This document shows, one piece after another, positions 1-46,519 of a stretch of 64,000 bases of DNA. Numbering within the stretch: position 1 is the stretch's first letter; the number at the start of each line of letters is the position of its first letter. The stretch is from Isoetes taiwanensis (Eukaryota > Streptophyta > Lycopodiopsida > Isoetales > Isoetaceae), in assembly GCA_021234155.1 (NCBI GenBank), contig JAJEKV010000011.1, forward strand, positions 6,093,132-6,157,131. Direction: 5' to 3'. The notes below the pieces were generated by a model. It worked only from the letters and a program-made list of their open reading frames with translations. It did not search any database and was not told the DNA's origin. A program made the translations under genes and the position numbers.

Positions 1-6
1 AAACAT

Positions 7-6377: not shown

Positions 6378-6387
6378 GTTGCTGGCC

Positions 6388-7375: not shown

Positions 7376-7379
7376 TCTT

Positions 7380-8435
7380 GCAAATTCTGAGGCTTCGAGA
7401 TTTATCCATGAAAGATGGCCAGAATTGAAAACGAACCAGAACATGTTCACTTTGGTGGTCATGCAACAGATGGTTTTAATCCTTTTTCACAATGGGCTGC
7501 CTCATGATGTACCTGGCTAGTCATGCTTGTAAATTACAATATACCCCCAGAGGAATCTATTGAATGAAAATTTACTAAACTAATTTCTTGAATTTCAATC
7601 ATATTTAAATTGAGGCTTAATGCAGGTTTAGTCGATTACATTGGTTTGGCAGGACAAGTTTCTGATTGTTGGATGTTTTTTCTTGAACAGTTTATAAATT
7701 CTTAAAGATTTTGTGAGACAATTTGCCAAACTCGAGGGGAGCATGTGTGAGGGGTGGCTTGTTGAAGATTGCAAGTTTGTCGTATCAACATATCTTAATA
7801 ATGTTGATAACGAGGCAACGATGTTTCTACAACTTGAACAAGGCTTGGATAGGTTACATAGCAAAGGGCACACTTACAAATTAGACCCCATGAGCTTAGT
7901 GCTATCAAATCGTATAGATCAGCAATTATTTTGACAACACTCACGAGCCACACATCTTCAACCTTCATGAGCTAGAGAGATTACCAGATCATACACACGA
8001 AGATTGGTTATTAACATAATCTTAACCCAACAAGAGATCACGTTGGTTCTGTGAGTGACAAGAAAAGAGCAAAATGACATTGCAACATCTATGGAATCAT
8101 ATCTTATGAGAAGAGGTCATAGAAGATATCAAAAAGAAAGTGAAGATCTATGGGCTGCTATTTTCTGCAGAGAAGTTGTGCAGGTCCATTGCTTATAGTT
8201 CTTTTTATCAGTCAACAACTTCATTCTTTCTGAAGCACAGTTGACAAGATATAGATCAATGTATTACAACCACAAGCTGCTTGCTGATCTCTATGGATCC
8301 TTGTTGATTTTTTTGGAGGACAAGGACAAATTCCGACTGTTTCACACTAACAACTGGTCCCCTGACCATTATATCTTTGGATCAACTGATGCCTTCAACA
8401 CTTACTTTAACTCTGTCTTCTTTTCTGACACATGA
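7380..8435 (+). pseudogene. CACTA (En/Spm) TnpD-like transposase relic, copy A
   Basis: Three broken blocks point to a CACTA transposase. About 7455-7560 reads GHATDGFNPFSQWAAS followed by WLVMLVNYNIPPEE. This resembles the DGFNPF...YNLPP segment of TnpD. About 7713-7870 reads RQFAKLEGSMCEGWLVEDCK, which resembles the PEGSIAEGY segment of the DUF4218 region. A poorer block runs to about 8435. Stops and frame changes separate them. The family assignment is from remembered motifs. The same relic, equally broken, is in copy B. Confidence 0.5.
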
Positions 8436-22752: not shown

Positions 22753-22782
22753 CATATAAGTCGTATTTAATTAAAGTGGGAC
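22753..22782 (+). repeat. Left arm of a perfect 30-bp inverted repeat
   Basis: These 30 bases (core GTCGTATTTAATTAAAGTG) are the exact reverse complement of 34897-34926. Together they enclose 12,174 bp. They could be the ends of a large DNA element. Alternatively both could be remnants of one LTR family in opposite orientation, because this arm lies just where an LTR would follow the copia fragment. Confidence 0.85.
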
Positions 22783-22971
22783 AAATCTTGAATTTTGGGA
22801 CTCGGACTGAAAATGGGACTCACACACCATAAAAGAAATTTCTGAATTGATTGCTTGAATAGAATTACACATGACACACATAGAATTGGGTTACTTGTTT
22901 TCCTCATAAATTTTACAAACCACTAGTTGAGAAAGTTTTCAAACTTCTCAATATTATGCACCCTCATACAA

Positions 22972-25880
22972 TGATATAGCATGGAGGTTGCTCATGGCCT
23001 TGTCCATCTCCTTTCTTGGGATCTTGTGTGTGTTGTCTTTTGCAATGTGAGAACTTGGATATGACCATACCACACACTCCACCAATTCCCTCCTTTGAGG
23101 GTCAGCATAATTTGGCCTCCACTTCTTCTCCCCCAGCCGTGTATTGCTCCTTCAAGTTGCCCTTCTTGTGCCTCCCAATGGGCTCCCAATATTGAATTTG
23201 GAATCCGGGACGCAACTCCTCTCCATCGCATAGTGGTGGTCACATCGAGAGAGTGCCACCCCTAACCATATTGGACAGTCCTCATCATCGCCTTACTAGC
23301 ACAAAGTATCCTTCCTTGATGTCCTCAAAGGGATCCCACTCGGAAGATCAAACCACTTCGCTTTGAGGCCTTACTTCCCACAAACCACTTGGGACCCAAG
23401 TGAGCATTCTTAGACGTGCTTGCACCTTTGAGAACCCTCCCATCTTGACTCGGCAAGAACCCCGCCTCTTAGCTCCCTCCCACATGGTTGTTCGGGCCCT
23501 AAGCATGTTACAACTTTCTCCCAAAGACTTGATTAGGGAGTCCATTTGATTTTTCTTAAGAGTGGAGGTGTGCTTTCCATTTCAACATCATCCCAAAGCA
23601 TGTTATGTAATCCTTGATGCCCTTCACCCAGTTGGCTAGAGTCTTTGACCGCCTTGAAGGGAGGTAGTGGTTTTGGCTGCCCTTTAGGAATGAGAACTTC
23701 ACCAGCAGCACCCCTTTGCCACAACTTCGATACCTTGTACAGGGCATCCACAACTTGTCACCTGGTCTCCACTTATATTGCATGATTGGTATTCCATCCC
23801 TAACCCAAAACTTGAATTGAAGTGGCTTTGTGTGTCCTGTCAACCGGTCCTTGCCATCTAGCAAGTATCCTTCTACAAATGATTTCCAATCAACCTCATC
23901 CATCAAGAAAGCCATTGGGTTGGGGTCAATGCAGCTCTCAAACACATCCATTAGTTCGGGGAGAGTGGTCACGTTTTCTCTCTTGAGCTTGGTGGAGAAA
24001 GTTCCAAAGAATCCATCAATATCATCATGCGTATGCCCAACCATCATGAATCCCACTTTCACAACTTTGAATACTCCCACCTTTGTCAAAGTATGACATT
24101 GCCCCAAACATCCATCTATTCTTGTTTTCTTTCCAACAGTTGTCCAACCAACACATAGCTCCTCGGTGCTGATTTCTCTAGTAAGGGGAAATCATCCCAA
24201 GTCCTCCTTGATTCACTAGGCACCTTGGATATGAGCTTTTTATCCGCCTTTGGTAACAAAGCGGTTGATCATCCATCAAAGCCTCAAAATGGGTGCTGAA
24301 GGGGAATACCTCCTCCCTTCTATCGATCCTTTCTCTAGTGTTCTCAAGCACTTGAAAATAGAGCTCACATGGAAGTTTGGATCATCTCTCCATAGATCAA
24401 GCACAAAATGACCATATGTTCCAGTTCCATGACCATGTGTTAATACACCCGCCCGGACTTACTTTCTTACGAAAAGCGTTTTGACAACGCTTGGGTAAAG
24501 GATCTAGCTTTGGCAAGAAAGTCTTGTGTTGGTCCATCTTATCATGAATTATACACAAAAATTTGTCCGCTGCATCTCGAAAAATGTTCTCCACTTTGCC
24601 AATACAACCGCCTACATGATATTTGGTCCCTTTGGTGATCTGCAAATTGCTCCCTAATTGCCATTCTTTCTTTCTCTATTGCAGTTGATGCAAGTGTATC
24701 CTTGAGTTGAATGCAAGTGTTGCACTTTGAGAATGGCATGTGTTGTAGGACACTCACGTCCGAAGTGAGTGCTCCATAACTTGCTGAAATGTGATTGAGA
24801 AAGAGGCCTACCTCCAAAAGTAGTTTCTAGGATGGAGTTGACCTCCTTAAGGCACTCCTTTTGGATATAGTGTTGTGGCAACACTCTTTGCACCACTCGC
24901 ACACCGTGCTCGTTCACCTTCGACTTGTGGGGCATAGATTGAGACATGTATCTCACAAAGCTCTCAAGACCTGCAATGGCCTTTAGAGTATTTGCTCTAG
25001 GTTTCAAAGTGAGTGCATTACCATGTTGGAACAAAGTGTGCCCTTTTCTAACCTGCTCCCAATTCTCACGTAAAATGAAGACTTGCTCACCCCAAGAATC
25101 CATCTCAATGCTCTCATACATACCTTCATTCCCCTCAATTGATATAGCAGCCGTCCCCGTGTTTTCATCATAGCCGGAATTCCTACACAAGGAGTAAATG
25201 AAATTAATCCTATCTTTTTGAAGTCGTCCAATGTATTGGGACCTTATCTCAACGAGGTCATCCACATTGTAATGCACCAATCAGGCAATCTAGGTTGCAA
25301 CACTCTTGTCCCCTAATTGCCTCCAGGTTTTCTTTGGTTGGTGCCATACTTTCCATCCTTTCTAAATATTTGTCACTTCTAGGCCTCTTGGGCACCTTTT
25401 TGGCTGCCTTTTATGAAAGACATAGCGTCTCTTCCTTGTGATCAAAGGATGCTCATCGACCACCAAATCTTCCACATGGCCTTGGGTGGGCCTTGGGGTG
25501 TGTAGTTCAAGAGGGCATTCTAGAGTATCACCATTCTTGTGTGTAATAAATCTAATTGGCCATCTCAATCGAAGCTTGGGACTCCAGCAGCCCTGAGCAC
25601 ACAATGCAATCACTAGAGCTTCCCCGGACATGATAGTATCAACTTCGATAAGAAGCTTCACAATGCCAACTCCAAGATGTTCATCTCCCACCTCTCATCA
25701 TTCACACTATCAAATGGATCAACTGCAGTTATTATGCCCTCTCTGCAAATACCGGCCAGTTGCAAGGGTGCAACAAAAGGCAACCCATCCTCCTCCATTG
25801 GAGCCTAGGGCAATGGCCTCCTTTGGACTTCCCCGGCTCCATTTTACTCATCTCACATGCTCCCCGAATGAAAAAGCTCA
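22972..25880 (-). pseudogene. Transposase-like protein with GHTHDDID motif
   Basis: Read right to left. 25362-25691 (WPIRFITHKNGDTLECPLEL) comes first, then 24654-25280, an intact 208-residue block with IGRLQKDRINFIYSLCRNSG. Next come 24542-24817 (SVLQHMPFSKCNTCIQLKD) and 24397-24645 (FLCIIHDKMDQHKTFLPKL), then a GHGTGTYGHFVLDLWRDDPN block near 24390. 23556-24107 carries VGFMMVGHTHDDIDGFFGTF, and poorer tails run to 22972. Neighbouring blocks are in different frames, so at least four frame breaks are present. The conserved Asp/His motifs resemble transposase-like proteins seen in seedless plants and other eukaryotes (possibly the DUF7869 group; not verified). It is not functional as written. 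Confidence 0.6.
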
Positions 25881-26230
25881 CATTAAAACCATATAGCCCC
25901 AAACACCACAAATATGACCATATGAACCATATAAAACCATACAAACATATTAAATATAACCATATTAAATCATACAACCATATTAACTAAAATCATATAA
26001 CCATATTAAAGCATACAACCACACTCATTCTAAACCATATGTGAACATTGTAACCATATATACCATTGATACTATTCAACCATTGAAACCTTATTAAATA
26101 CATAAGACAACATATATAAACATATAACCAACCCTTTCATATCTTGGCATGGCCACGTGGCCTCTTCGGAGGTCAAAAACCGCGGGCCCGTCAAGAATCC
26201 GCCTTTGCCACGCCATGGAGGGCATGGCCC
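25881..26230. other. Degenerate ACCATAT repeat and spacer
   Basis: Between about 25900 and 26110 the word AACCATAT/ACCATATTA recurs more than ten times as a degenerate microsatellite. From 26130 the base composition becomes GC-rich and leads into a promoter-like region. No coding frame is supported. Confidence 0.6.
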
Positions 26231-26232
26231 TA

Positions 26233-26249
26233 CACGTGATGTATATATA
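26233..26249 (+). promoter_or_regulatory. G-box and TATA box, plus strand
   Basis: CACGTG (26233-26238) is followed by TATATATA (26242-26249), then a CT-rich leader (about 26280-26360) typical of plant 5' UTRs. The nearest plausible coding start downstream is 26674. Confidence 0.45.
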
Positions 26250-26673
26250 TTATTGCACTTTTTACGAGGTTCGAGGGTGCGGCCAATTAATCGCACCCTC
26301 TTCCTCTCCCCGACCATTCTTCCTCCCCTGTTTTCTCGATCACTCTTCGAGCTCCTGTTTCCTTAGGCGCCCGCTTTCTGCCGTCAGTGATCGATCGAAC
26401 CGAAAGCGATTCCAGCGCCATCTTATGACGTTGCAGCTTGGTCGATCGGGGCGCTTCCAAAGCCCCTAGGGTTCTCGCGGGTTCATTGTTCAATGAGCGC
26501 ATTCTGCTTTGAGAAGAAAGTGAGGCCCTTTTTAGTCTTTGCTTTTTAGTTTTCTCACGTAAGTCTTTTAGTGCATTTTTTCTTATATTACATTTGTTAG
26601 AGGCTCTTATTAATCCCCGATACAATTCTGACCCACAAATCCTTATTCACGCTTTGTCAACGACTATACCCAC

Positions 26674-26721
26674 ATGGAATCGAAGTCGGAAGCCTCCTCC
26701 TCATCCAAAGAAATCTTCCGT
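26674..26721 (+). CDS. Possible first coding exon (16 codons)
   Basis: An ATG at 26674 opens MESKSEASSSSKEIFR, which runs directly into a consensus GTATGT donor at 26722. Position fits the promoter at 26233. The next exon is not certain, but the plus-strand coding pieces from 29.4 kb onward are candidates. If the hairpin array at 27.1-28.4 kb is transcribed from this promoter, it would lie in the first intron. The exon is short and its reality rests only on the start, donor and promoter order. Confidence 0.3.
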
Positions 26722-27127
26722 GTATGTTTTTGTAATATCATACCCTTTTTTAATCTCATTTTTCCTTGACCGCTCTCCACTTTTCTCCTGTATTGTTCTC
26801 CACTTTTCTCTTTTTCTCATTAATCTTAATAATCTTTGTATTGTTTTCTCGCTTTTTGTTATCTTTTTTCTTGCTTGTGGTTGAATTGAATACATTGTAC
26901 ATGGACAAGTGAGAATAGTGGTTATAGTAGCAAGCAACCGAGAGAAAATCATCGAGACCGGTGTTAGGAAGTAAGATATTGCGAGCATTAACGTAAAATA
27001 ACTAGGAATGTCTTTCTCCCAAAGAAGAATTCAGAATAGGAATTGCTTCCTGACGAATCTCCATTTCTAACTCACAAAGAAATCCAATCGCAGGAGACAT
27101 GCAGAAGGGAGTGGCGAGTTGAGAATA

Positions 27128-27246
27128 CTTCAGCTTGCCAACAGTCAAGGAAGTACAGGCCTTCTTCTCGACTCGCGAGTCGAGAACTTCTCGACTCGCG
27201 AGGCGAGAAGAGGGAGTGTACACTCTGGACTGTTGGCAGGTTGAGG
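27128..27246. repeat. Foldback hairpin H0 with two palindromes in its loop
   Basis: CTTGCCAACAGTC at 27133-27145 pairs with GACTGTTGGCAGG at 27228-27240, followed inward by AAGTACA / TGTACACT. The loop end contains two adjacent copies of the CTCGACTCGCGAGTCGAG palindrome (27165-27186 perfect; 27189-27210 with one change). Confidence 0.7.
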
Positions 27247-27372
27247 GATTCTCGACTTCATGACCGGATTGCACAGACTACCCAATGTCTTCACATTCTT
27301 TAGAACCTCGTCAAGCAGCCTTCTCGACTCGTGAGTCGAGAATGTGATACCCTGCCAATGGCTCTTTGTGCA

Positions 27373-27473
27373 GTCGCAGGTGCCTCCACCCAGTCTGAGC
27401 CACTCTCCTTCGAACCATGCTCATCGAATATTGCGAAGAGGACTGGCTCCGACTGGGTGGAGGCCTCGGCGAC
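27373..27473. repeat. Hairpin H1 of the array
   Basis: The core is 83 bp (27382-27464). The left arm has CCACCCAGTCTGAGCCA, the right arm TGGCTCCGACTGGGTGG, with 31-bp arms around a 21-base loop (AACCATGCTCATCGAATATTG without its last base). The outer base pair block GTCGC/GCGAC extends it to 101 bp. The form resembles a plant MIRNA foldback. Confidence 0.75.
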
Positions 27474-27540
27474 TAACCACTGGAGCTGGCGGCTTTCGAC
27501 TTCGTGAGTCGAGAAAACGCAGGCTCTAGTGCACTCGAGC

Positions 27541-27623
27541 TGGCCTGCAGACAGTCTCAACCACTCTCCTTCTATCTTCCTCGGACATTGCGAAGGGAAG
27601 TGGTTTTGACTGTCTGCAGGCCA
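27541..27623. repeat. Hairpin H2 of the array
   Basis: The hairpin is 83 bp. The left arm starts TGGCCTGCAGACAGTC and the right arm ends GACTGTCTGCAGGCCA. The inner stem is CCACT / AGTGG. The loop contains TATCTTCCTCGGACATTG. It lies in a segment duplicated in tandem (about 27493-27660 and 27778-27946), whose second copy carries H4. Confidence 0.75.
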
Positions 27624-27653
27624 ACTCTTAGCAACCCAATTCTCCTGTGTGTG

Positions 27654-27754
27654 GTCGCAGTGGCCTCTACCCAATCAAAGACCGTCTCCTTCGAACCATC
27701 TTCGTCGAATATTGCGAAGGGGATGGGCTCTGATTGGGTGGAGGCCTCGGCGAC
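27654..27754. repeat. Hairpin H3 of the array
   Basis: This is the same plan and total length (101 bp) as H1, with outer GTCGC/GCGAC. Arms read CTACCCAATCAAAGACC and GGGCTCTGATTGGGTGG. Relative to H1 two base pairs have changed on both sides (G-C to A-T, A-T to C-G), keeping the stem. The loop AACCATCTTCGTCGAATATT is close to that of H1. Confidence 0.75.
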
Positions 27755-27826
27755 TAACCACAGAGTTGCTGGCTGCTTTCTCGACTCGTGAGTCGAGAAA
27801 ACGCAGGCTCTAGTGCACTCTAGAGC

Positions 27827-27909
27827 TGGCCTGCAGACAGTCTTAAACACTCTCCTTCTATCTTCCTCGGACATTGCGAAGGGAAGTGTTTTTTACTGTC
27901 TGCAGGCCA
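27827..27909. repeat. Hairpin H4 of the array
   Basis: This is the tandem partner of H2, also 83 bp. Inner stem ACACT / AGTGT replaces CCACT-type pairs of H2, so one C-G pair became A-T on both arms. Another pair is lost. The loop is identical to H2. Confidence 0.7.
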
Positions 27910-28163
27910 ACTCTTAGCAACCCAATTCTCCTGTGTGTGGTCGCAGAATGCATGCATTCCACAGAGCTTGCTGTATGCATTCTCGGCTCGCGAGTCGGGA
28001 ATGCCTTACCCAACCGGCACTCCATGTGTACTAACCGGAGTTCTGGATGGCCAAGGCATTCTCGACTTGCGAGTCGAGAATGTAGACAGGAAGCCAAGCA
28101 TTCTCGACTCGCAAGTCGAGAATCCCTTAGCCAGCCAATTCTCCTCATTAATGCGGTAGCAGT

Positions 28164-28248
28164 GGCCTCGACCCAGTCAGAGTCACTCTCCTTCGAACCA
28201 TCTTCGTCGAATAGTGCGAAGGGGAGGGGCTCGGACTGGGTGGAGGCC
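28164..28248. repeat. Hairpin H5 of the array
   Basis: The core is 85 bp. Arms are GGCCTCGACCCAGTCAGAG and CTCGGACTGGGTGGAGGCC, with loop AACCATCTTCGTCGAATAGT. The flanking ACTAACCACAG matches the flank of H3. Confidence 0.7.
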
Positions 28249-28342
28249 TCTACAACTAACCACAGGGAAACCACAGAGGAAGCCAAGGCTTGCATTCTCT
28301 ACAAGTACTGCACTTTCTATTCTCCTGTTTTTAGTCCCAAGT

Positions 28343-28425
28343 GCCTCTAGCACAATGCGAGCCACTCTCCTTGAACCATCTTCCTCGAATATTGCGAAGA
28401 GGAGTGGTTCTGGACAGTGGGAGGC
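28343..28425. repeat. Hairpin H6 of the array
   Basis: The core is 83 bp. Arms GCCTCTAGCACAATGCGAGCC and GGTTCTGGACAGTGGGAGGC (last/first bases trimmed) pair less well than H1-H5. The loop AACCATCTTCCTCGAATATT and CTCTCC/GGAG inner stem are conserved. Confidence 0.6.
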
Positions 28426-29462
28426 CCTCCCGACTAACTACAAGAGGATGCATTTGAACCGCATCTCACGGGCCTTAGTCCTAGCCTCGATCTATGTACA
28501 ACATTCCAAGTAAACAGTCCATGGAAAAAAACAGGACCTAAAACGGGAATTCTTTACCCCCTCGATCCAATGTTTCCTTGCCGAGCATCTCTCAACCTAG
28601 AGAGTAAATCATCTCTCGAAGCCGAAAATCTTTGGACAAGGAAACACTCTTGAATCCGTCGAGCTTATCGCCAGTTCCATTATTTAAACACATACGGCAT
28701 GTTCTACAAGCGAAATAACATAGGCATCTCTCAAACTCACCTCTTCACGCGCGGTAATTCCTTGGGCCAGATATCGGGATCCCCGAGCCTCACCCGAGTC
28801 TTTGCTTCTTCGCCGGTCTCTTCAAGAGTGTATTCGCATCTATTACTTTCGTATCACCTGCGATTCTCGTATCCCCTTTCCATGGCCCGCGGTTGTAGAG
28901 TTCCTCCGTGTTCCGGCGGCTCCTCTCCGCTTCCTACCTTAGCTCCGTTTCATCGATCAATTCAACCGCTTGCAATAGGGGCTACGGTCGGAAAAACACA
29001 CATATGCAAGGCGGCCATAGCAGCTTACCGCGTCAGCGGCGCCATTCCTAAGTCGCTAATCTAGCCGATGATCCCCTCCGACCTCGAGTTCCCCAATGCC
29101 GCGAGGAAGATAAACTACGCCCACTCACTTAGTCCCTTGATGTGATTCAATTTCGAATAGTGTTTGGGCGGGCTAAAGCCGACCGTCTTTGTACCCTTAG
29201 CCCGCTTTTTTCATAAATGATTGCATGTCCTTAACTTCAAATTAAAGAACACGCCCGATCTTTTTACATGCAGTCCTAAAACTCACAACGCTGGAGGAAA
29301 CTTAATTTACTGAGTCGTCCAGAAGAGGATGAGAGGGCATATAGAAATGACTCCGGCCCAAGAAGCTTAGGCGCGGAGGGGATGCTTACGCCAAATGCAA
29401 AGAAGAAGAAGAAGACAAACACCCCGTGAGCTCGAGGTTTTTCTTTGTCGGAATACCTTAAC

Positions 29463-29773
29463 TGATCCATCCTTTCTTCTTGCAAAGATTCACCTCGGAC
29501 TCACCGGTGATCACCGGGTCAACTCCATTCTTCGTCATCGAGGGACTGGAGACAGAGCTTCTTGAAACAAATGCGGCAGATTCTTGGTGGTATGTCGAGG
29601 TATCGACAAGTGGGAAGGAGAAAGATCTGTTTCTACACCAAAGGGACAAGAAGAGCTCCGGAGACAAGTACAAGAAAATCGGTGTTGTGCTCTCCGCCTC
29701 TGCGCATTCGAAGCATTTAACACTACATGTCGAGGACTGCCGGAAGAGTAAGTTCTATCGCACCAAAAATTAG
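29463..29773 (+). CDS. Coding fragment of unknown protein
   Basis: An open plus-strand stretch with protein-like composition follows a TTCTTCTTGCAAAG acceptor-like sequence. It reads FTSDSPVITGSTPFFVIEGL, then NAADSWWYVEVSTSGKEKDL and LTLHVEDCRKSKFYRTKN before a stop at 29771-29773. The family is not recognised. It probably belongs to the same broken or multi-exon gene as the pieces at 29.8-30.4 kb. Confidence 0.35.
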
Positions 29774-29799
29774 CGCTTCAAATTATTCTCACTCTTCCA

Positions 29800-30436
29800 T
29801 GAGCAAGGCTAAGGGCACCAAAAAAGGCGGCGCCTTTAAATTGTCGAGAACCTTGGGTGGAAGGATCCGAAGGGATGAAGGAGGCCGGAACCCTAACATC
29901 CGGGGAGCTTGGTATGGAGATTTCAGTCGTCGGAAAACTGTTCAATACGGGAGCTTCACTTCTCTTGTCTTTGAAGACTCTACAACACTCTGCGGTGGGG
30001 GAATGTTGTGGTTCATACACAAAAAAGTCCACCAAAAACAAAGATAGGGATGATGACACCACACCTGGAGGAGTCGGATGACGAAGGAGACGAAGATATG
30101 GTCGACTCCCAAACCTCGATCCGGATGATCGATCAGGATTTCTCGAGAGGGGCACGTAAAATGGAGCCGTCTAGCTCAAGATTATCCGTTGGGAATATCA
30201 CACAAGCCGCTGCTGGACATTAGACGGCTGAAGATTTGCACGGAGATGCCGCCTTGTTCAACCATTGGAATTTAATCCAAAGACACATGCCGGAGATTCT
30301 CAACTCGATGGTGCGACATCCCCGCTGCGGATCCAATGCCCTGCGGATGTCATACCTTTTAGCGGTCGACAGTGAGTTGTTCAAATTGGAAGTCCGAGGA
30401 AGATCCGAAGGAAAAGACGCCCGGTTAAGGTTGTAG
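29800..30436 (+). pseudogene. Broken coding stretch of unknown protein
   Basis: Successive plus-strand pieces in different frames look protein-like. They are KAKGTKKGGAFKLSRTLGG (from about 29800), KEAGTLTSGELGMEISVVGK (about 29857-30080), an acidic ESDDEGDEDMVDSQTSIRMI (about 30070-30222), and FNHWNLIQRHMPEILNSMV (30236-30436, ending at a stop). The hand-overs need one-base shifts and there is a stop at 30221-30223. Either the gene is decayed or this GC-rich, palindrome-rich part contains small assembly errors. Confidence 0.35.
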
Positions 30437-30659
30437 ACGGTCAGCATTCGCTTAGGGCGCTTGCATGTATTGCGTAACGGAGAAGGAGGTGCCGCAAAGG
30501 ATCAAGGATAGATATGCCAAGCGAGAGTGCAGAGTTCTTTCTACGGAGACGCCAAAGAACCGAACCCAGCCAAAGATTAGCCACCGCTGGGAACACAATA
30601 GCGGCGAAAGTGCCGCCTACGTAAGGTAAATAACTCTCACGAATCTTTCCATTCTGACC

Positions 30660-31030
30660 GCGAAGTCGAGAAAGCCCCGCCATCCTAACATTTGCCGATT
30701 ATCATCGGGGTTTCTCGACTCGCGAAATCGAAAGCCCGAGTAAATACGTAAAAATCAAAGGATGTGGAGCTTTCACTTCGCGAGTCGAAAACCCTTAGCC
30801 AGTAAAAGAAAATTAGACATTGAATGGGACTTTCTCGACTCGCGAGTCGAGAAAGCCCTGCCATCCTAACATTTGCCGATTATCATCGGGTTTCACTTCG
30901 CGAAGTCGAGAAAGCCGTGGTAATGCGTAAAATCAAAGGATGTGAGCTTTCTCGACTTCGAAGTGAAAACCCGAAGAAAAAAAGAAAATTAGACATTCAA
31001 GGGACTTTCTCGACTCGCGAGTCGAGAAAA
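30660..31030. repeat. Two tandem units of about 180 bp carrying palindromes
   Basis: CCATCCTAACATTTGCCGAT occurs at about 30680 and 30858, and AAAGAAAATTAGACATT near 30806 and 30981. Each unit has palindrome copies at matching places, but different half-sites are damaged in each unit. One half reads TCACTTCGCGAAG where the intact form has CTCGACTCGCGAG. Confidence 0.65.
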
Positions 31031-31109
31031 CCCGGGGCTACTATTTACTGTTTATTCCTGGGTGTTTGTAGATACTTTCATGCTCTGACATTGGTACATT
31101 GTCTGAATG

Positions 31110-31756
31110 CAGCCCTTATCCTGACCAGATCATACACGCTAGGCAACAGTGGAAAGCATTGGGTTGTCCTCAGCGTCCTAAAGGAAACAGGGCTCCCTGA
31201 TAAGTGGAAGACCTTTGAGAAACTATGCGATATGTTCTCACTGGAGGGACAGAAGATGACGAGGAGAGGAAGAAGAGGAGAAGAAGAAGAGAACACCAAG
31301 GAAAGGCGGGGAGTCTCTCTCGCACCAAATACGACCTCATTCTTAGCAATCGGTCCGGGAGAAATGGACCGACATATGGGCTCAATGGACAAGAGGCAAG
31401 TCAAGGACAATGGAGAATTTCCAAGCAGGCCCGACCCCAAGTTGTTTGACAAGCAGTTCATGAAGAGGATACAGGGCCTCACGGACAAAGAAACGCTTGA
31501 CCTACAAGGCAAAATCTTGGAGGGAACAATCCTGCTGAGGAAGACCAGGAGTTCTAAATTGCAGGACGCAAAGGATTATGCCACAGTCCTAAAGCGACAG
31601 CGTGCGTTAGAAGAAGGCATCACGGAGTTCTGCAACGTTGCATCTAATGAATACCATGATTTTGATTATTACAAGGAAAAGGATGCCCTTGATGAGGAAG
31701 ACATGAAGGAATTGAACCGTCTATGTCAACCCTACATCAACACCAAGCTGAAGTAG
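31110..31756 (+). CDS. Unknown charged protein, single long exon
   Basis: The frame stays open through the palindromes upstream, but the natural start is an acceptor TGTCTGAATGCAG near 31110. From there it reads LILTRSYTLGNSGKHWVVLS, KLCDMFSLEGQKMTRRGRRG, EFPSRPDPKLFDKQFMKRIQ, LKRQRALEEGITEFCNVASN and ends EEDMKELNRLCQPYINTKLK with a stop at 31756. It is about 215 residues, strongly charged and probably helical, with no recognised domain. It is the best preserved plus-strand frame of the block. The stop is followed by non-coding sequence until about 31912. Confidence 0.45.
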
Positions 31757-31911
31757 CGTCAAAACCCTTCCTTTCCCCGAACGTGCTATGGCAATTCTGA
31801 AAGGAAGCTTGGATTCGGGGGTGGTCCCATTTAAAAGCGCATTTATAGCTCCCCCATTTCTAGTTACTTTGGGACACAAGGGGATTTGGTGGTGCGAACT
31901 GCACTGGACCC

Positions 31912-32694
31912 GTGGCACTATTTGCCATCAATATGATCGAAGACCCCACCCTTTTTTATGACAAAGCTGACATAGAGCAGTGGTACAAGACGTGTCTAGA
32001 CATGACCGACCTGGATACTTTCGGTTTCCTTGTCTTTTGCATCTTGGGGCAATCAAACAACTCTTTGTCTCCCAAATGGGCGGTGATATTAACTTCACCA
32101 ACAAGATCATGCACTCCATATACGAACTTGATCATGAGTGCGGACTTGGCTTCCCGAAGGCACCAAGCTTTGCCAACATAGTTTTGGTTTTGATTTCAAG
32201 ATCGGCCATTCGACCGGATAAGTGGTGGTCTAGCGAGCATCATTATCTCGACAAGTTCATGATCTCTCAAGAGCGGATGGAACCACGGAAGGGGGCAGGT
32301 TTATGGAGGATGTTCCATCGATGGACAAGGTCAGCAAGGATGGTGCGACCGGTCCTATACATAGAATTCCTATCCGGCCAAGAGTTATCAAGTACTTCAT
32401 AACCAGGCTTGGTGAGGAAGATCAAATTGTATCACGAGTGGTACATGAATGGCTGTTCTCTCTCGGGGGGGCTATCTTTGTTTGGAATGAAACCTATATC
32501 CGTGGTTGGAAATAAGGACATGGTTGAAACCATTCAGTCATACACGGATCTGCTTCATGAGCATTTCAAGGGGAGGAAGACAAATGGAAGCGATAAAGAC
32601 GGCGAGGGCGAGGGGAGACAAACCCGCGGAGGCGAGGATGTCGAAGGTTTGGACCGTAATCTTGCCGAAAACATTATTGAAAACCTGAGATTGA
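31912..32694 (+). pseudogene. Unknown protein exon with internal stop, ending at a GTGAGT donor
   Basis: A first piece reads NMIEDPTLFYDKADIEQWYK (31930-32020). A frame break follows, then a long frame reads GDINFTNKIMHSIYELDHEC and RPDKWWSSEHHYLDKFMISQ. A TAA at 32400-32402 interrupts it. The same frame continues as KDMVETIQSYTDLLHEHFKG to NLAENIIENLRLR, where GTGAGT gives a good donor at 32695. The next exon is probably the HAD-like one. The family of this N-terminal part is not recognised. Confidence 0.4.
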
Positions 32695-32848
32695 GGTGAG
32701 TTTACTTTTGCTCTATCGGTGTTTCTCGACTTCGCGGTCGAAAAAACTTCGTTCCTTTCAATACCTTTTTTTGTCATTCATTCTCGCGAAGTCGAGAAAA
32801 ACTCGTTCCTTTCTCGGCGGATGTCATCATTTCGGGGAATTCCAGCTC

Positions 32849-33681
32849 ATCGAGTCCGGATCATTGTCAATGGATTCCAACGGTTCCGCGTCGCGAGGAG
32901 AATGAGAATGAAAATCCGAGCAAGACACCGCTCCACGGCCGGAAAAGAACTCGAAAAGTTAATGATCCCGCATTTGGATCCCGATGAACCCGGAAATATG
33001 GTCGAGCCAAACTCCAATCGGGATCCAAATGGTCCCACCAAGCTTGTAATATTTGGCGTCAATGGAGTATTAGCTGCGGTATACCCGCGACAAAGACGTC
33101 CCCAGATTAACACCTCGCATCCCGGTGAAAACAGAGCATAAAATAGTGTATCCGGGCCTAGAGCTAAGGAAATTATTGACCGGTGCCCGCACGGGGATTC
33201 GAAGTGGGCATATGGTCTTGTATGGCAAAGAAAAATATTGTCAATGTTCTTGGTGTTCTCGGCATTTCAGTTTTGAAGTTCAAGTTCGTTTGGGGAAAAA
33301 CGAAAGGGTCGAGCATGTGAAGGACCTCGATCCAGCCATCACAAAGGGGAAGCCTATAATGGTGAAAAGGCTGGGCCGGGGTTTCTGAGCTATTCGGGAC
33401 TATGGCAAACACAACACGCTGATCATAGGCGACTCCGCCTACAAGTGCTATCATAACGCGCAAAAATACAATCATTGCTAAGCCATATCGACCGAAGAAT
33501 ATGAGACGGATAGGTGGTTGTCCTTCGGACTCGTCCTGTCTTGGCGGAATCCCTCTTCGCCCATTCTTGTCGCCCGATGTGCTTACGAACTATCCGAGCC
33601 TCCGCGGAACCCGATCCGAGAGAAACCCGATCATGAAAGCTATGGGCGACAAATACTTTGGTGAACAAGAAGAGTGACCCT
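32849..33681 (+). pseudogene. FCP1-like HAD phosphatase domain, nucleophile Asp replaced by Gly
   Basis: The order of motifs matches an FCP1/SCP-type HAD phosphatase: KLVIFGVNGVLAAV (about 33035-33080; the family has D where this has G), then IVYPGLELRKLL, GKPIMVKRLGRGF before a TGA at 33386-33388. In the same frame follows KHNTLIIGDSAYKCYHN, matching the conserved DDSPYK region. A last piece ends NPIMKAMGDKYFGEQEE at a stop near 33681. Active enzymes dephosphorylate phosphoserine on proteins such as the Pol II CTD using the first Asp, so this product should be inactive. Frame breaks at about 33120 and after 33470 also disable it. Gene capture by a mobile element is possible. Confidence 0.5.
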
Positions 33682-34136
33682 GCTTTCCGGATAGTCAAAT
33701 TGTGTGAATATTGTAATCGAGCGTGAACACATGTATTGACCATTTTGTAATGAATATACTTGTATATTGAGTTTTGATGCCTTTCTCGACTCACGAAGTG
33801 AAAAGGCATGCTTGTTGATGAAATGCTTGTACAATCTATTATGATAATGCTTGTACATTGGGTTTCACGGCCCTTTCTCGACTTCGCTGAGTCGAAAAGG
33901 CTTGAGTTTTCTCGTTGAAGAAAGCATTTGTATGCTTCCGTGTGTGATTGGATGCAACCATATTCTAATGAGTATGGTTGTACTTTGACTTTTACCGGCC
34001 TTTCTCGACTCGCGAGTCGAGAAAGACACTACTTCCCACGTCATTGGATGCAGTTGTATGGAATGAATGTTCTCCGTTGTAATTTGATTTCAACGTTCTT
34101 TTCTTCGTTTTGACTAATGACACCGTAATTGTTAAT

Positions 34137-34576
34137 CATACTCTCCTTGCTCCGTGGTTCGAGCACGTGATCCGACACCCACCTGCATCCCGCCGAGGCA
34201 TCACAGAGACCGCTCAAGGCGGAAGAAATACCGTTCTGGCACAGATCCCGGTCACGCTACACTCTTGCCCGGCCTTTGGGACAAGGTTGCTCGCGAATTC
34301 AGAGGTTGCTCGCTACACCCTAGGGATAAAGAACAGGCGAAGAACAAAGAGATAGTCCAGGAAGCTCAAGGCATCTTGCAAGCATTGCATAACATCCACG
34401 GAGGTTGGGGATGGAGCATATTCGATGAAAGGCTGCGGGAGGCGAGTGGAGAAGTCTGGGTGGGCAAAGGTCGGCCGGTAGCTCGAGGGCACCTCCACGT
34501 GAGGCATTCCACACTCTTCAGGTTGCCCCAAGGCTTACTGAGGGGCATGAAGAAGCGCCACAAGTTAATCCCCTAA
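34137..34576 (+). CDS. Unknown C-terminal exon
   Basis: The plus-strand frame ends GKGRPVARGHLHVRHSTLF, then LPQGLLRGMKKRHKLIP and a stop at 34574-34576. Upstream it reads LWDKVAREFRGCSLHPRDKE and EAQGILQALHNIHGGWGWSI. A different frame (LLAPWFEHVIRHPPASRRGI) fits the start better, so a frame break near 34200 is likely. No domain is recognised. It is followed by an AATAAA signal. Confidence 0.35.
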
Positions 34577-34673
34577 GGTGGACCACCTACCAAGATGATG
34601 TAACTGTAGTGACAGCAAGACCGCCATGGTCTCTGCGTCCGATGTAAAATACATTGTATCTGTTCAATTTATT

Positions 34674-34679
34674 AATAAA
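34674..34679 (+). terminator. Polyadenylation signal AATAAA
   Basis: AATAAA lies about 100 bases after the last coding stop of the plus-strand gene series, in a T-rich context. Placement is reasonable for a plant 3' UTR but the hexamer alone is weak evidence. Confidence 0.35.
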
Positions 34680-34896
34680 AATTCTTTTTCAACTAGATCT
34701 TTGGTTTCAATCTTTAATGAATTTCCTTTGTTTCAGTTGCATTGTTTTTGTTCTCGACTCGCGAACCTGGGAAAACTGGAGCAAAGCTCGGATTCAGAGT
34801 TTTATTCAAAAATTCGAATTTAGTATAGTTTTCGGGTCGGGGTGCTACTTTTTATGTAAATTAACCGGGTTCCGAAAAAAAATGGGAATGGAATGA

Positions 34897-34926
34897 GTCC
34901 CACTTTAATTAAATACGACTTATATG
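34897..34926 (-). repeat. Right arm of the 30-bp inverted repeat
   Basis: This is the exact reverse complement of 22753-22782. Just inside, GAATGAGTCCCAC resembles GGGACTCAC words inside the left arm, but the similarity stops soon. No clear target duplication is visible outside the arms, only TATA on each side. Confidence 0.85.
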
Positions 34927-36214: not shown

Positions 36215-36810
36215 AATTACAAAAATGGTATGTGAAGAACTTGCTCTAAGAAATATGTTTTTAAACAATCTAATTTAGCTAGCCTATCCTCAATTTCTAC
36301 GTTCCTTATAGAGCCTCCATGGCAAAAATGTAAGATACAAAAGAATATCTAAAGGGAAGCTCTTCTCTCTCTATTTTGTTAAGATTTGAATTCAAGAATA
36401 AATGTAGAAATGCTTAATTTATGCACATTGTCGAGACACTGCTTGGTATGCTCTGTAGTTTCTACAATATAAAGAAATAAAAAAAAGCGTTCAGTTTAAA
36501 GATTTCAATCTCAAAATCTCCAAGTTAATCTTGGAAGCATGACCTTATGCTGAAAGAGCTTTGCTAAACACACCGGCCAACTGATTCCTTATGCAACGAT
36601 GATTGATGTAAGAATGCCAGATATACAAAATAAAAAGGTTTCTAATAGCAAAAACTAACCTTTTTACTCCTGCTTTAAGAATCGAAAATAATGCTTGGAG
36701 TGCTTACTGCGAGCTACGAAGAGGGCTAAATCCATTGAAAGACTAATTCAATGTCTTAGAACTCCTGAAAACGAATTACGCCAGTGTTTAAAACCAAACC
36801 TAAGATTGTA

Positions 36811-36929
36811 TAGGGGAATGGAGGTTGGGACTCCATTCCCGGTTTTGCAGGTGGGGTCCCGCGACCGGCGTTAGCCGGGAGCGGGTCACCTGCAAAACCG
36901 GGAATGGAGGACCAACCTCCATTCCCCTA
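36811..36929. repeat. Long hairpin with self-complementary arms (T-shaped fold)
   Basis: The left arm 36811-36862 pairs with 36880-36929 over about 48 bp (TTTTGCAGGTG with CACCTGCAAAA, AGGGGAATGGAGG with CCTCCATTCCCCT). Each arm also folds on itself: GGAATGGAG...CTCCATTCC on the left, GGAATGGAG...CTCCATTCC on the right. The loop contains GACCGGCGTTAGCCGG. Confidence 0.8.
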
Positions 36930-37493
36930 CAAAATAGAAATAGGGGAGGCAAAAACAGAGGTCGGATCTTGGTAGAAAGAGAGTTTTAGAAGTTGCATCT
37001 GGCGAAAATAGAGGCCGAATCTTAGCAAGAACAGAGGTTTAGAACAGATCTGGTAAAAACAGAGCTCGGATTGGCAAAAACAGAGTTTTAAAGGTCGAAT
37101 TTGGCAGAGCTTTACCTGTAAAGAAAGATTAATCCTGCTATTTACCTGTAAAGAACATTAACCCTGCGATTTACCTGTAAAGAACGATTAACCCTGCGAT
37201 TTACCTGTAAATCTAAGCCCTGCGTGAAGCACTGGCGGCGTAAACACTGTAATCTAAGCCCTGTAATCTAAGCTTGAAGAATCGTGTAATCTAAGCTTGA
37301 AGGATCGTGAAGAATCGCAGAGCTTGAAGAATCGTGAAGAACTGGCGGCGGAAGATCTGAAGAACCCTAACCTAACCTGTGCCGCCGGTCGCACGGAATG
37401 AAGAAACCCTTTCCATTCCGCAATATTTGCTAGTGCCACGTGTCACTATACGAATGGTCGCCAGAGAATAAAGCCGACCCTATTTCTATTTTG
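36930..37493. repeat. 16-bp inverted repeat bounding a 564-bp unit with tandem repeats
   Basis: CAAAATAGAAATAGGG at 36930-36945 is mirrored at 37478-37493. The interior holds degenerate repeats: CAAAAACAGAG words (36948-37095), a roughly 32-bp unit with TTTACCTGTAAAGAA (37111-37215, three and a half copies), and AATCTAAGCTTGAAGAATCG words (37250-37340). It adjoins the large hairpin, so both may be parts of one foldback element. No gene is supported. Confidence 0.5.
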
Positions 37494-38510: not shown

Positions 38511-38686
38511 GGGTAGCGATTGTTTATTAAAAACACAGAACTCTGCTAAGTGATAACATGATGTATAGAGTCTGACACATGCCCGGTGCTGGAAGGTGAA
38601 ACCAAGAAGTGTAAGCTTTGCATGGAAGCCCCCGTAAACGGCGATAGTAGCTCTAACTATCCTAAGGCAGCGAAATTCCTTGTCGC
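38511..38686 (+). rRNA. Fragment of organelle-type large-subunit rRNA (23S-like, peptidyl-transferase side)
   Basis: The stretch GGTAGCGATTGTTTATTAAA, then ATGCCCGGTGCTGGAAGG, CCCGTAAACGGCG and CCTAAGG.AGCGAAATTCCTTGTC follow the order and spacing of bacterial/organelle 23S rRNA around the domain IV-V junction. The usual GGCCGT...ACGGTCC helix is here GATAGT...ACTATCC, so both strands of the helix differ but still pair. Only about 175 bp is present, so it is a non-functional transferred piece. The mitochondrial genome is the more likely source than the plastid, judging from wording such as GACTCTG-like CTCTGCTAAGTG; not verified. Confidence 0.7.
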
Positions 38687-38763
38687 TATGCTTCGCAAAA
38701 CATTAAAAGAATTAAAAGGTAAAATAGGCTATGCTCCAAAAAGACTTATGTAAAAACACATCT

Positions 38764-40824: not shown

Positions 40825-41486
40825 TGTTGGAAAAATTTGGTTTTTCAAGTTCACCTTATAATGAGAAGGTTGTTTAAGTTGTACAGGTTATTTATGTTGC
40901 ACTGATGATCACAGCATTTTATCAGTGCAATGCTGAGCTTTCTAGACTCAAGGTGCAGAAAGAAAGCTCTAAAGCAAGTTAACCCATTCATTTATAATGG
41001 TTCGTTAAAGGAAGGCTTTAACACAGTTGAACCATTGGGTTAAAGTTATATTATTTCTAATGGTTAAACATTGGAAATTATTTGTATCATATCGAAGACT
41101 TCATCAAGTGTACAGATTGAAAGTTTATCTGGAGGGAAAACCTCCGGATCAAATTTAGAAGGCATCTGCGGTCGAATGGATTGGAAGAACGGATCGGTAG
41201 TCTCCATGACCGCCGGATCCCTGTAAATATAAACCTAAGAAGTATAGTCGAGAATACAGTTGAGTTATTTTGAAGATTGCATTGATTTGAGTAAAGGTAT
41301 TCATTTTCGTGACCATTTGACTTACTTGATTATGGATATGAATTTTGTAATGCTAGTATTAACTCAATGGCTACAATGAAGGATAAGAATTGTAGTGGTG
41401 AAGTTTGTCTAAGGAAATAACTTTCAGTATTGATCCACTAAAATGTTAATGGTTTACATTTGATATTTGATTTAAGATATCTAACA
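40825..41486 (+). repeat. Left LTR
   Basis: 662 bp, starts TGTTGG, ends CTAACA. A TATAAAC at about 41228-41234 could be the promoter. Two differences from the right LTR. Confidence 0.95.
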
Positions 41487-41487
41487 G

Positions 41488-41499
41488 TGGTATCAGAGC
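41488..41499 (+). other. Primer binding site
   Basis: TGGTATCAGAGC lies two bases after the left LTR and is the standard plant copia site complementary to the 3' end of initiator methionine tRNA. Confidence 0.9.
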
Positions 41500-41513
41500 A
41501 GGTTATAGTCAAT

Positions 41514-43154
41514 ATGTCAAGCAGATTTGGAGCTGGTTTGCTAACTGCTATAGAAGTATTTAAGGGTGACTCTGGTTTTCAAGTATGGAAGGAAAAAGTC
41601 AAGCATGTACTAGAAGTAGAAGATCTTTGGGATCTGATCGAGACAGTAGAGGAAGAGTCTAAGCTAAGAAGCTTAACTAGAAAAGTTGTGGCAGAAGGAA
41701 GTTCAAATACTGGAAGCAATGAAGAAGTTCAAGTTGAGGAAGTGAGTGAGGTATCAGCAAAAGGAGGTGCTGGAGACAAGGCCAGAATAAGAGAAGCTCA
41801 AGGAATTATCATGGGCAAAGTAAGTTCTAGCATTGTGCTAAAGTTGAGAGGTATGACACCTAAGCAAATGTGGAATTACATGCTAATTAATTATGAGGAA
41901 AAGACATCCTCTCAGATTGATGTGTTGGAGAATGAGCTAAGGAGATTGAAGTTTAATGAAAATGATGATGTGAATGAGTTCTTGCAAAACTTTGACAATG
42001 TGATTGCAGATCTAGAGGGAGCTGGGGTAACTTATACTCAGCAGCAGCAGGTACTAGCAATGTCTAGGGCTTGCTCAAGCCTAGGTAATATCTCCATATT
42101 CATGAGAACTATTGCTAAAACCAAAATGGAAGCAGAAAGAATGTTGAAAACTGAACTGGAGCAGAATAAAGTATTGGGAGAGAATGAAAATACTCAGGTG
42201 CTGTTTGTTAAAGGAAAGGGTGAGAACAAAAGCAAACAAGAGGGACGTGTTGGAGGAAAAATTGGACCATGTTTTAATTGTAATAAATATGGGCATCTAA
42301 AGGTTGATTGTCCTGTTGTGACAAGGGAAATATTCTGCTATCACTGTGGAGGGAGAGGACACATTGCATCTTCCTGTTCAACTCCTAAAGACAATGTAAG
42401 CACTAGGGGAAGGGGCAGAGGTAGAGGATCAAATTTCAGAGGCAGGGGAAGAGGGAGGACTGGAAAAACAAATTATGAGGCAAATGTTGCTGAGGAGGTA
42501 AGTCTGGAAGAAGACAGTCCAGAAGAAAATGAAGAGGTAAGAAATTCTGAAATTTATGATGTTTCTAGTAACAAGGTTGATGATGATTTGCTGATTATAG
42601 ATAGTGGAGCTGAAAAATCGATAACATACTCTTCCAAATATTTGAAGGAGTGCTGTGAAAGCAGAGGAGGCAATGTTCAAGTTGGAAATGGCAGCTTACA
42701 GAAAATAGAAAATGTTGGAGTATTAGAGCTATTTGACCTAGATGGAAAAATAGTGAATTTAAGAAATGTTCTTTGTGTTCCTTCATTAGTAAGGAATCTT
42801 ATTTCTATTTCCCAGTTAGTAGACATGGGATTCAGGGTTGTGTTTGAACAACTCGAATGTAAAATCTTTGAAGGAAATAAATTAAGGTTTCTTGGCAAAA
42901 GAGTTGGCAATTTGTTTGGATTGAACTCTAAATGTATTGGCAGTATAAACTTGTCTACTATTGCAAATGCACATACCTGGCATGAAAGACTAGGACATGC
43001 AGGCATAAAAAATATTCATGACATGGCTAAGAAAGGATGGATAAAATGTGAAAATGCAGAAATTGACAATGAGACATGCATGGGATGCATCTTTGGGAAA
43101 AACATAGCAGGTTACCTTTTGGCAAAGCTAAGAAAAGAGCAAAGGCACCACTAG
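41514..43154 (+). CDS. gag: Copia gag, protease and gag-pre-integrase region
   Basis: The ATG at 41514 (MSSRFGAGLLTAIEVFKGDS) is chosen; the frame is open a little upstream, but only through the LTR and primer site. Residues 1-240 are the capsid region (FNENDDVNEFLQNFDNVI). Two CCHC zinc knuckles, CFNCNKYGHLKVDC and CYHCGGRGHIASSC, lie near residues 252 and 274 and bind RNA. An RG-rich stretch follows. The aspartic protease motif IIDSGAEKS is near residue 362. The HHCC finger of the gag-pre-integrase domain (HTWHERLGHAG ... CMGC) is near residues 488-525. The frame then runs off into 20 non-homologous residues and stops at 43154, because the reading frame changes after ...IFGK. Confidence 0.93.
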   Translation: MSSRFGAGLLTAIEVFKGDSGFQVWKEKVKHVLEVEDLWDLIETVEEESKLRSLTRKVVAEGSSNTGSNEEVQVEEVSEVSAKGGAGDKARIREAQGIIMGKVSSSIVLKLRGMTPKQMWNYMLINYEEKTSSQIDVLENELRRLKFNENDDVNEFLQNFDNVIADLEGAGVTYTQQQQVLAMSRACSSLGNISIFMRTIAKTKMEAERMLKTELEQNKVLGENENTQVLFVKGKGENKSKQEGRVGGKIGPCFNCNKYGHLKVDCPVVTREIFCYHCGGRGHIASSCSTPKDNVSTRGRGRGRGSNFRGRGRGRTGKTNYEANVAEEVSLEEDSPEENEEVRNSEIYDVSSNKVDDDLLIIDSGAEKSITYSSKYLKECCESRGGNVQVGNGSLQKIENVGVLELFDLDGKIVNLRNVLCVPSLVRNLISISQLVDMGFRVVFEQLECKIFEGNKLRFLGKRVGNLFGLNSKCIGSINLSTIANAHTWHERLGHAGIKNIHDMAKKGWIKCENAEIDNETCMGCIFGKNIAGYLLAKLRKEQRHH

Positions 43155-45748: not shown

Positions 45749-45838
45749 CTTACAACAAATGATGGAAGTCAAATTATAGCAGACAGATTATGGAATGTCT
45801 TATGACAGGTTCAAAATATAAGAAGTAGCAGCATTATA

Positions 45839-45852
45839 AGGTGAAAGGGGAA
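45839..45852 (+). other. Polypurine tract
   Basis: AGGTGAAAGGGGAA directly precedes the right LTR and is the plus-strand primer site. Confidence 0.9.
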
Positions 45853-46514
45853 TGTTGGAAAAATTTGGTTTTTCAAGTTCACCTTATAATGAGAAGGTTG
45901 TTTAAGTTGTACAGGTTATTTATGTTGCACTGATGATCACAGCATTTTATCAGTGCAATGCTGAGCTTTCTAGACTCAAGGTGCAGAAAGAAAGCTCTAA
46001 AGCAAGTTAACCCATTCATTTATAATGGTTCGTTAAAGGAAGGTTTTAACACAGTTGAACCATTGGGTTAAAGTTATATTATTTCTAATGGTTAAACATT
46101 GGAAATTATTTGTATCATATCGAAGACTTCATCAAGTGTACAGATAGAAAGTTTATCTGGAGGGAAAACCTCCGGATCAAATTTAGAAGGCATCTGCGGT
46201 CGAATGGATTGGAAGAACGGATCGGTAGTCTCCATGACCGCCGGATCCCTGTAAATATAAACCTAAGAAGTATAGTCGAGAATACAGTTGAGTTATTTTG
46301 AAGATTGCATTGATTTGAGTAAAGGTATTCATTTTCGTGACCATTTGACTTACTTGATTATGGATATGAATTTTGTAATGCTAGTATTAACTCAATGGCT
46401 ACAATGAAGGATAAGAATTGTAGTGGTGAAGTTTGTCTAAGGAAATAACTTTCAGTATTGATCCACTAAAATGTTAATGGTTTACATTTGATATTTGATT
46501 TAAGATATCTAACA
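45853..46514 (+). repeat. Right LTR
   Basis: 662 bp, same ends as the left LTR, two substitutions. Followed by GTGCT (46515-46519). Confidence 0.95.
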
Positions 46515-46519
46515 GTGCT

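What the first reader, a model, noticed from the sequence alone, without database searches (positions are those of the whole stretch)
27128..28425. Tandem array of about 83-bp hairpins with conserved loops and co-varying arms
Six hairpins (27373, 27541, 27654, 27827, 28164, 28343) share length, phase and loop (AACCATCTTCGTCGAATATT or a relative), while the arm sequences differ. Between H1 and H3 two base pairs changed on both sides; between H2 and H4 one did. Stem pairing therefore seems to have been maintained while sequence drifted. A plant MIRNA or siRNA-foldback cluster is the simplest explanation. Conserved loops with variable arms are the reverse of the usual MIRNA pattern, so an unusual foldback family is also possible. 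The array lies between a promoter/first exon (26233-26721) and coding pieces.
Basis: partly seen in the sequence, partly recalled or inferred. Interest (0 to 1): 0.75.

Follow-up and report, generated by a model that had tools for sequence, protein, structure and literature searches.

The report
Hairpin cluster inside a quillwort transposon
The hairpins are real, but they are an untranslated part of a 12-kilobase jumping gene present in many copies in what looks like a quillwort genome; their stems tend to stay paired, which hints that they work as folded RNA, although no RNA has been seen yet.

Summary
In detail: six related foldbacks (27369-28446) fold far better than shuffles (z -2.6 to -10.4), and the stated base-pair changes are correct. 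The setting was missed. The cluster is the noncoding middle of a 12,164-bp DNA transposon (22758-34921) with 25-bp terminal inverted repeats and a 4-bp target duplication, in a 1.658-Gb genome whose size fits Isoetes taiwanensis. The exact terminal repeat occurs 2,217 times. The array lies between two genes under purifying selection. I read 254 hairpins in 43 copies, 4-7 each. Pairing exceeds column-wise controls; tree-based compensation is enriched but weak (8 v 1.9, five of the eight on poorly aligned branches). Four short relatives with the same ends lack this hairpin family but keep a 22-bp palindrome. Best reading: a foldback-RNA cluster of the full-length element, possibly a Dicer substrate. 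MIRNA identity is unproven: no Rfam match at cut-off, the invariant part is the upper stem, and a target scan equalled shuffles. A new variant of a known kind; small-RNA reads would decide.

The parts
22758..34921 (.). 12,164-bp DNA transposon that contains the array
   Evidence: TIRs, edges shared by other copies, 4-bp TSD
22758..22782 (+). left terminal inverted repeat, 25 bp
   Evidence: exact 25-mer 1,102 + 1,115 times in the genome, reversed-pattern control 0
34897..34921 (-). right terminal inverted repeat
22754..22757 (.). target site duplication ATAT, left copy
34922..34925 (.). target site duplication ATAT, right copy
23688..25547 (-). first gene: windows with purifying selection in different frames; DUF7869 domain in ORF 23556-24191
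   Evidence: PF25273, E 1.3e-23; dN/dS-like 0.16-0.41; the opposite strand also scores low in places
29510..33438 (+). second gene: windows with purifying selection in different frames; no Pfam match above cut-off
   Evidence: 0.22-0.41; the opposite strand also scores low in places
27369..27485 (+). H1, class-1 hairpin
27530..27640 (+). H2, class-2 hairpin
27650..27766 (+). H3, class-1 hairpin
27816..27926 (+). H4, class-2 hairpin
28152..28268 (+). H5, class-1 hairpin
28331..28446 (+). H6, class-1 hairpin, weakest
27117..27257 (.). long foldback with two 22-bp palindromes at its tip
   Evidence: I1; most stable 150-nt window of the element
27966..28094 (.). palindrome-containing foldback
   Evidence: I2
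28037..28144 (.). palindrome-containing foldback, shares an arm with the previous one
   Evidence: I3
27165..27186 (.). 22-bp palindrome TTCTCGACTCGCGAGTCGAGAA; further copies, some with 1-2 changes, start at 27188, 27321, 27778, 27980, 28059, 28101, 30832, 31007, 34002
   Evidence: chance expectation 0.00; 3,678 exact sites in the genome, control 0

Best explanation
The array is an internal noncoding region of a 12.2-kb TIR DNA transposon that is abundant in the genome. It grew at least partly by tandem duplication of foldbacks and was present in each full-length copy that I read. Shown: position between two divergent genes under purifying selection; 4-7 family hairpins per sampled copy; pairing above column-wise controls; less change on internal relative to terminal branches than in spacers and flanks; absence of this hairpin family from four short relatives that carry the same ends. 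Inferred: the region is transcribed, perhaps as leader or first intron of the second gene, and the selected unit is the folded RNA. Most likely use, not shown: a cluster of Dicer substrates whose small RNAs tune host silencing or the element itself. The 22-bp palindromes are a second layer, shared with the short relatives, and more likely a DNA binding site.
For: Transposon: TIRs, edges and TSD; 15 of 16 elements with both ends read have identical 4-bp duplications (7 of 7, the window included; 8 of 9). Array inside it: 19 of 19 other loci align on both sides of the array. Structure kept: 92.0% of cells paired against 84.2% in column shuffles and at most 51.1% in slid registers; 215 two-sided cells against 73.9; 18 pairs against 9.9; 0 of 500 shuffles reach any of these (150 units, 104 distinct). 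On trees: compensatory double changes 8 against a mean of 1.9 in class 1 (largest of 500 re-pairings 7; slid registers at most 4) and 2 against 0.3 in class 2 (largest re-pairing 2). Internal/terminal change ratio on 39 arrays: loop 0.20, palindrome 0.22, stem 0.28, spacer 0.37, flank 0.44; Fisher tests on counts back-calculated from the rounded rates: stem v spacer p 0.003, stem v flank 2e-5, loop v spacer 0.02, loop v flank 0.003. Structure-restoring changes 51 of 209 internal v 72 of 458 terminal, p 0.01. Noncoding: the eight best windows of 26.7-28.6 kb have dN/dS-like values of 0.51-0.58 and 0-1 of 6 copies without a stop. Not needed by short relatives: 0 matches in 4 of 4.
Against: No transcript or small RNA was available. 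Column-wise covariation counts shared ancestry. On trees, 10 compensatory events stand beside 667 one-sided changes; 9 of 10 are on terminal branches, where decay after insertion dominates, and 5 of the 8 in class 1 lie on three branches with 15-26 differences, which look shifted by indels. All co-changes, compensatory or not, are hardly above re-pairing (16 v 11.8; 3 v 2.9). Strand: majority wobble states favour + strand RNA 15:5 (p 0.04) only because of the palindrome foldbacks, two of which share an arm; the six-hairpin family alone gives 4:3 (p), and G-U v A-C on internal against terminal branches gives p 0.25. In unit trees the class-1 loop ratio (0.55) is not below that of the stems (0.23-0.50). 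39 of 43 arrays were found by a hairpin query, so they do not test retention; of the other four, C35 and C33 were already listed with an exact loop match, and only C60 and C134 were picked without one (both have hairpins). The target scan is negative.
Confidence: 0.42

Rival explanations
1. Mutational by-product: foldbacks arise and stay symmetric because replication slippage, template switching or gene conversion copies one arm onto the other; no function in RNA.
For: 9 of 10 tree-level compensatory changes are on terminal branches; stems change more than flanks even on terminal branches (1.62 v 0.84 per site, where imperfectly matched array slots also add changes); part of the array is a 286-bp tandem duplication.
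Against: Internal/terminal ratios of stems, loops and palindromes are lower than those of spacers, which mutation alone does not predict; structure-restoring changes are relatively more frequent on internal branches (51 of 209 v 72 of 458, p 0.01).
Confidence: 0.3
2. DNA-level cis element: hairpins and palindromes are sites where an element-encoded protein binds to keep the region open or to assemble transposition, as VANC proteins do on noncoding repeats of Arabidopsis VANDAL elements.
For: The 22-bp palindrome is found in four of four short relatives that otherwise share little but the ends and is clustered in two more diverged loci; 3,678 exact sites; noncoding, fast-changing middle of the element.
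Against: The arms of the six hairpins change together in part, which does not fit a fixed binding sequence, and the short relatives lack them; no DNA-binding domain was recognised above cut-off. It fits the palindromes better than the hairpins.
Confidence: 0.2
3. True MIRNA cluster: one mature 21-22-nt species per hairpin with host targets, a lycophyte counterpart of miR820.
For: Long stems of pre-miRNA size with few mismatches; precedent of miR820 within rice CACTA elements (PMC3459959 abstract).
Against: No Rfam family at its cut-off; the most invariant stem part is the upper end, while the rest of both arms varies more than the loop in class 1 and, for the lower stem, in class 2; best complement in 16 methyltransferase/Argonaute loci, 18 of 21 in an exon that I read by eye as MET1, scores 3.0, reached by 4 of 5 shuffled sets, though not by the reversed sequences (4.0).
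Confidence: 0.15

Closest known systems
miR820 in rice CACTA DNA transposons (PMC3459959, abstract and outline seen)
   Same: pre-miRNA-like foldback carried inside a TIR DNA transposon
   Different: here 4-7 foldbacks of two classes per copy, in an element with other ends and genes; no small RNA or target shown
miRNA-like regions in maize transposons (PMC10760457, abstract, opening and outline seen)
   Same: strong local foldbacks within elements, which there correlate with small RNAs
   Different: those regions were found by folding in general; here one homologous hairpin family at one place of one element
VANDAL noncoding tandem repeats bound by VANC (PMC10398659, abstract and outline seen)
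   Same: repeats in a fast-diverging noncoding region of a DNA transposon
   Different: VANC targets are protein-bound; here palindromes plus long foldbacks, no binding protein identified
Sirevirus palindromic repeats (recalled; one search gave only a listing)
   Same: clusters of palindromic foldbacks in an element's noncoding part
   Different: retrotransposons, not TIR elements
Sola2 DNA transposons (PMC3627910, passages seen)
   Same: short TIRs and AT-rich 4-bp target duplications
   Different: no Sola transposase was tested here; the only domain found is DUF7869, for which one search found no paper in the library

Membership tests
plant MIRNA locus | stem-loop with few mismatches and no large bulge | tested here: met
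   for H1-H5; H6 is weak
plant MIRNA locus | precise small-RNA duplex in sequencing | not testable with these tools
   no reads held; PMC5569507 describes a small-RNA library of Isoetes sinensis (passages)
plant MIRNA locus | member of a described family | tested here: not met
   Rfam: nothing in the array at cut-off; below cut-off 18 miRNA-precursor matches by shape, the best 34.4 of the 90 bits required (mir-3179)
plant MIRNA locus | arm block more conserved than the loop | tested here: not met
   only the upper 7-8 stem pairs are more conserved than the loop
plant MIRNA locus | complementary target | tested here: inconclusive
   16 loci only; best score equalled by 4 of 5 shuffled sets
MITE (hairpins as independent mobile units) | copies dispersed on their own | tested here: not met
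   19 of 19 other loci cut out by a hairpin query align on both sides of the array; 20 of 40 scored matches were not read in that call
TIR DNA transposon (the host element) | terminal inverted repeats and target site duplication | tested here: met
TIR DNA transposon (the host element) | recognised transposase superfamily | tested here: inconclusive
   DUF7869 only; no PDB sequence at E below 0.1, best 0.17; no structure was predicted
VANDAL/VANC-type motif array | element protein binds the repeats | not testable with these tools
   needs binding data; no DNA-binding domain above cut-off

The most novel reading that the evidence does not exclude
A lycophyte DNA transposon carries its own multi-hairpin small-RNA cluster, whose arms evolve quickly while pairing is kept, as a weapon against host silencing, next to a second, palindrome-based layer that is bound by an element protein.
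Probability: 0.12. Interest if true: 0.8.

Novelty: new variant of a known kind. Interest (0 to 1): 0.5.

Why it matters
Few transposons are known to carry regulatory foldbacks as a fixed module. Many copies of one array in a single genome make the evolution of a hairpin family directly readable, and the split between sampled full-length elements (hairpins and palindromes) and short ones (palindromes without this hairpin family) separates two possible functions that can be tested one by one.

Tried and rejected
Arms as derived from, or aimed at, the element's own genes or the rest of the window: best hits 13 exact nt (E 0.079), and 11 nt (E 0.36) in four short elements; no shuffle control was run. 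Host targets: 8 of 12 DNA methyltransferase matches and 8 of 65 Piwi matches were cut out; the best complement, 18 of 21 in an exon read as MET1 by eye (recalled motif; two genes, one of them present in two loci), scores 3.0; five mononucleotide-shuffled sets reached 3.0, 3.0, 3.0, 3.0 and 3.5, the reversed sequences 4.0. I treat it as negative. Strand by wobble type: 15 G-U v 5 A-C in majority states, but 4 v 3 in the hairpin family alone, and the branch test is not significant. Coding function of the array: no signal. Element superfamily: left open; no structure prediction was run. A first unit extraction by text pattern took some loci in the wrong orientation and was replaced by profile extraction. 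Rows dropped before counts: L005 (the window itself), L069 (the same copy as L008), and, before trees, identical units and units with more than 12 gaps (185 to 146 and 69 to 54).

For the last two, I lowered the best explanation from 0.45 to 0.42 and raised the mutational rival from 0.27 to 0.30.

Full report
What is there. The six foldbacks exist at the stated coordinates and fold well on both strands. They fall into two classes: H1, H3, H5, H6 (about 117 nt as modelled) and H2, H4 (111 nt, shorter loop). The two claimed double changes H1/H3 and the one H2/H4 are correct, beside 7 and 3 one-sided changes. Spacing is irregular, and part of the array is a 286-bp tandem duplication. Three more foldbacks in the same stretch carry a 22-bp palindrome. 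Taking the better strand, 25 windows of 150 nt in the array average -65.6 kcal/mol against -38.2 for 212 windows elsewhere in the element, of which the lowest is -60.2.

Where it lies. A genome search with H3 gave 40 scored matches out of 2,037 candidates. Of the 20 loci cut out, one (L005) is the window itself; the other 19 align with the window on both sides of the array. An inverted pair at 22758-22782 and 34897-34921 coincides with the edges of other copies and is flanked by ATAT on both sides; six other copies with both ends read have their own identical 4-bp duplications, as do 8 of 9 further elements (in the ninth one base differs). The element is thus a TIR DNA transposon of 12,164 bp. 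The exact 25-bp end occurs 2,217 times, the palindrome 3,678 times and one form of the hairpin loop 832 times, with 0 in the reversed-pattern controls. The assembly (1,658,258,908 bases, 1,110 contigs) fits Isoetes taiwanensis (1658.30 Mb; 204 scaffolds plus 909 contigs; PMC8566536 passages). That identity is inferred from size and contig number alone.

Genes. On the left the - strand carries DUF7869 (E 1.3e-23). Comparing six copies, windows with low nonsynonymous change lie between about 23.7 and 25.5 kb on - and between 29.5 and 33.4 kb on +; in a few places the opposite strand scores as low, so frames are provisional. In 26.7-28.6 kb the best values are 0.51-0.58 with stops in 5 or 6 of 6 copies. 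Identity of five copies to the window is 92-98% per 200 bp over the left gene and 63-91% from 26.0 to 28.5 kb. The second gene has no Pfam match above cut-off in the six pieces scanned.

Copies. Profile extraction gave 260 sense units in 44 arrays. After dropping the duplicate L069, 254 units in 43 arrays remain, 4-7 each, 185 of class 1 and 69 of class 2. 39 of these arrays were found by a hairpin query or are the window, and are no test of retention. Among the first 100 listed ends I paired 31 elements by hand: 12 of 3.5-5.8 kb, 14 of 11-15 kb and 5 wider than 23 kb. The exact loop pattern occurs in 0 of 12, 5 of 14 and 3 of 5. I then fetched four short and five long ones: 5 of 5 long ones carry family hairpins, also C60 and C134, which lack the exact loop; 4 of 4 short ones have none. 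The short ones share 65-104 bp on the left and 169-239 bp on the right with the window's element and short pieces around palindromes; they keep at least one to three palindromes with up to 3 mismatches, in foldback-rich stretches of their own. Two other palindrome clusters appear to be diverged relatives: L091 holds a terminal-repeat match, and L090 matches L091 at 87% over 526 bp. So the palindrome belongs to the wider group, and the hairpin family, as far as sampled, to the long element.

Is pairing maintained? On 150 aligned units (the best 150 of 447 model matches on both strands; 104 distinct) the structure exceeds column shuffles and slid registers on every measure. That counts ancestry. 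On trees of distinct units (146 and 54) I found 8 compensatory double changes on 6 branches in class 1 and 2 on 2 branches in class 2, against re-paired means of 1.9 and 0.3. 0 of 500 re-pairings reach 8 in class 1 (largest 7; slid registers up to 4); in class 2 re-pairings and one slid register also reach 2. Nine of the ten are terminal, and five of the class-1 changes lie on three branches with 15-26 differences that look shifted by indels. So tree-level support is real in number but weak in quality. Internal against terminal change is lowest for loops, palindromes and stems and highest for flanks, as constraint in moving lineages would give. Array slots are not perfectly orthologous in that alignment, and the tests used counts back-calculated from rounded rates, so these values are rough. 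In unit trees the upper stem is nearly invariant and the rest of the arms varies; the class-1 loop shows no lower ratio than the stems.

Function. Shown: noncoding, structured, present in the full-length copies sampled, absent from four short relatives that have nonetheless moved (perfect duplications in three of the four). Inferred: transcription, selection on folded RNA, Dicer use. The strand is open: the wobble count of 15:5 for + strand RNA comes from the palindrome foldbacks (11:2), while the hairpin family gives 4:3. RNA is favoured over a fixed DNA site because arms change together in part; a mutational origin of symmetry is the strongest rival. A direct test of the miR820-like idea on 16 silencing-gene loci gave a best complement of 18 of 21 in an exon that reads as MET1, but 4 of 5 shuffled sets reached the same score: a negative result.

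Known relatives. Precedents are miR820 in rice CACTA elements, miRNA-like regions of maize elements and VANC-bound repeats of VANDALs (abstracts seen). My searches for Isoetes genome and transposon papers, Isoetes small RNAs, transposon palindromes and DUF7869 listed nothing that describes this element (listings only, apart from the papers named here); the library holds open-licence papers only. I file it as a new variant of a known kind.

Noticed in passing
window 40825-46517: Copia-type retrotransposon (type recalled from the frames) with 665-bp ends 99.7% alike and long open polyprotein frames: a recent insertion.
   Followed up: partly
window 1-8401 and 52425-64000: Direct repeats 92-96% alike in five blocks flank the middle of the window; nature unknown.
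   Followed up: no
window 38519-38753: Piece of a bacterial-type large-subunit rRNA (124.9 bits), probably organelle DNA moved to the nucleus.
   Followed up: no
window 36805-36935: 49-bp inverted repeat, 92% complementary, 33-nt loop, outside the element.
   Followed up: no
L090:677-1200, L091:720-1215: Clusters of the 22-bp CG-rich palindrome in apparent diverged relatives of the element; a likely binding motif that deserves its own study.
   Followed up: partly
L076:2387-2407: 18 of 21 complementarity between a class-2 hairpin arm and an exon that reads as MET1 DNA methyltransferase; not above shuffled controls.
   Followed up: yes
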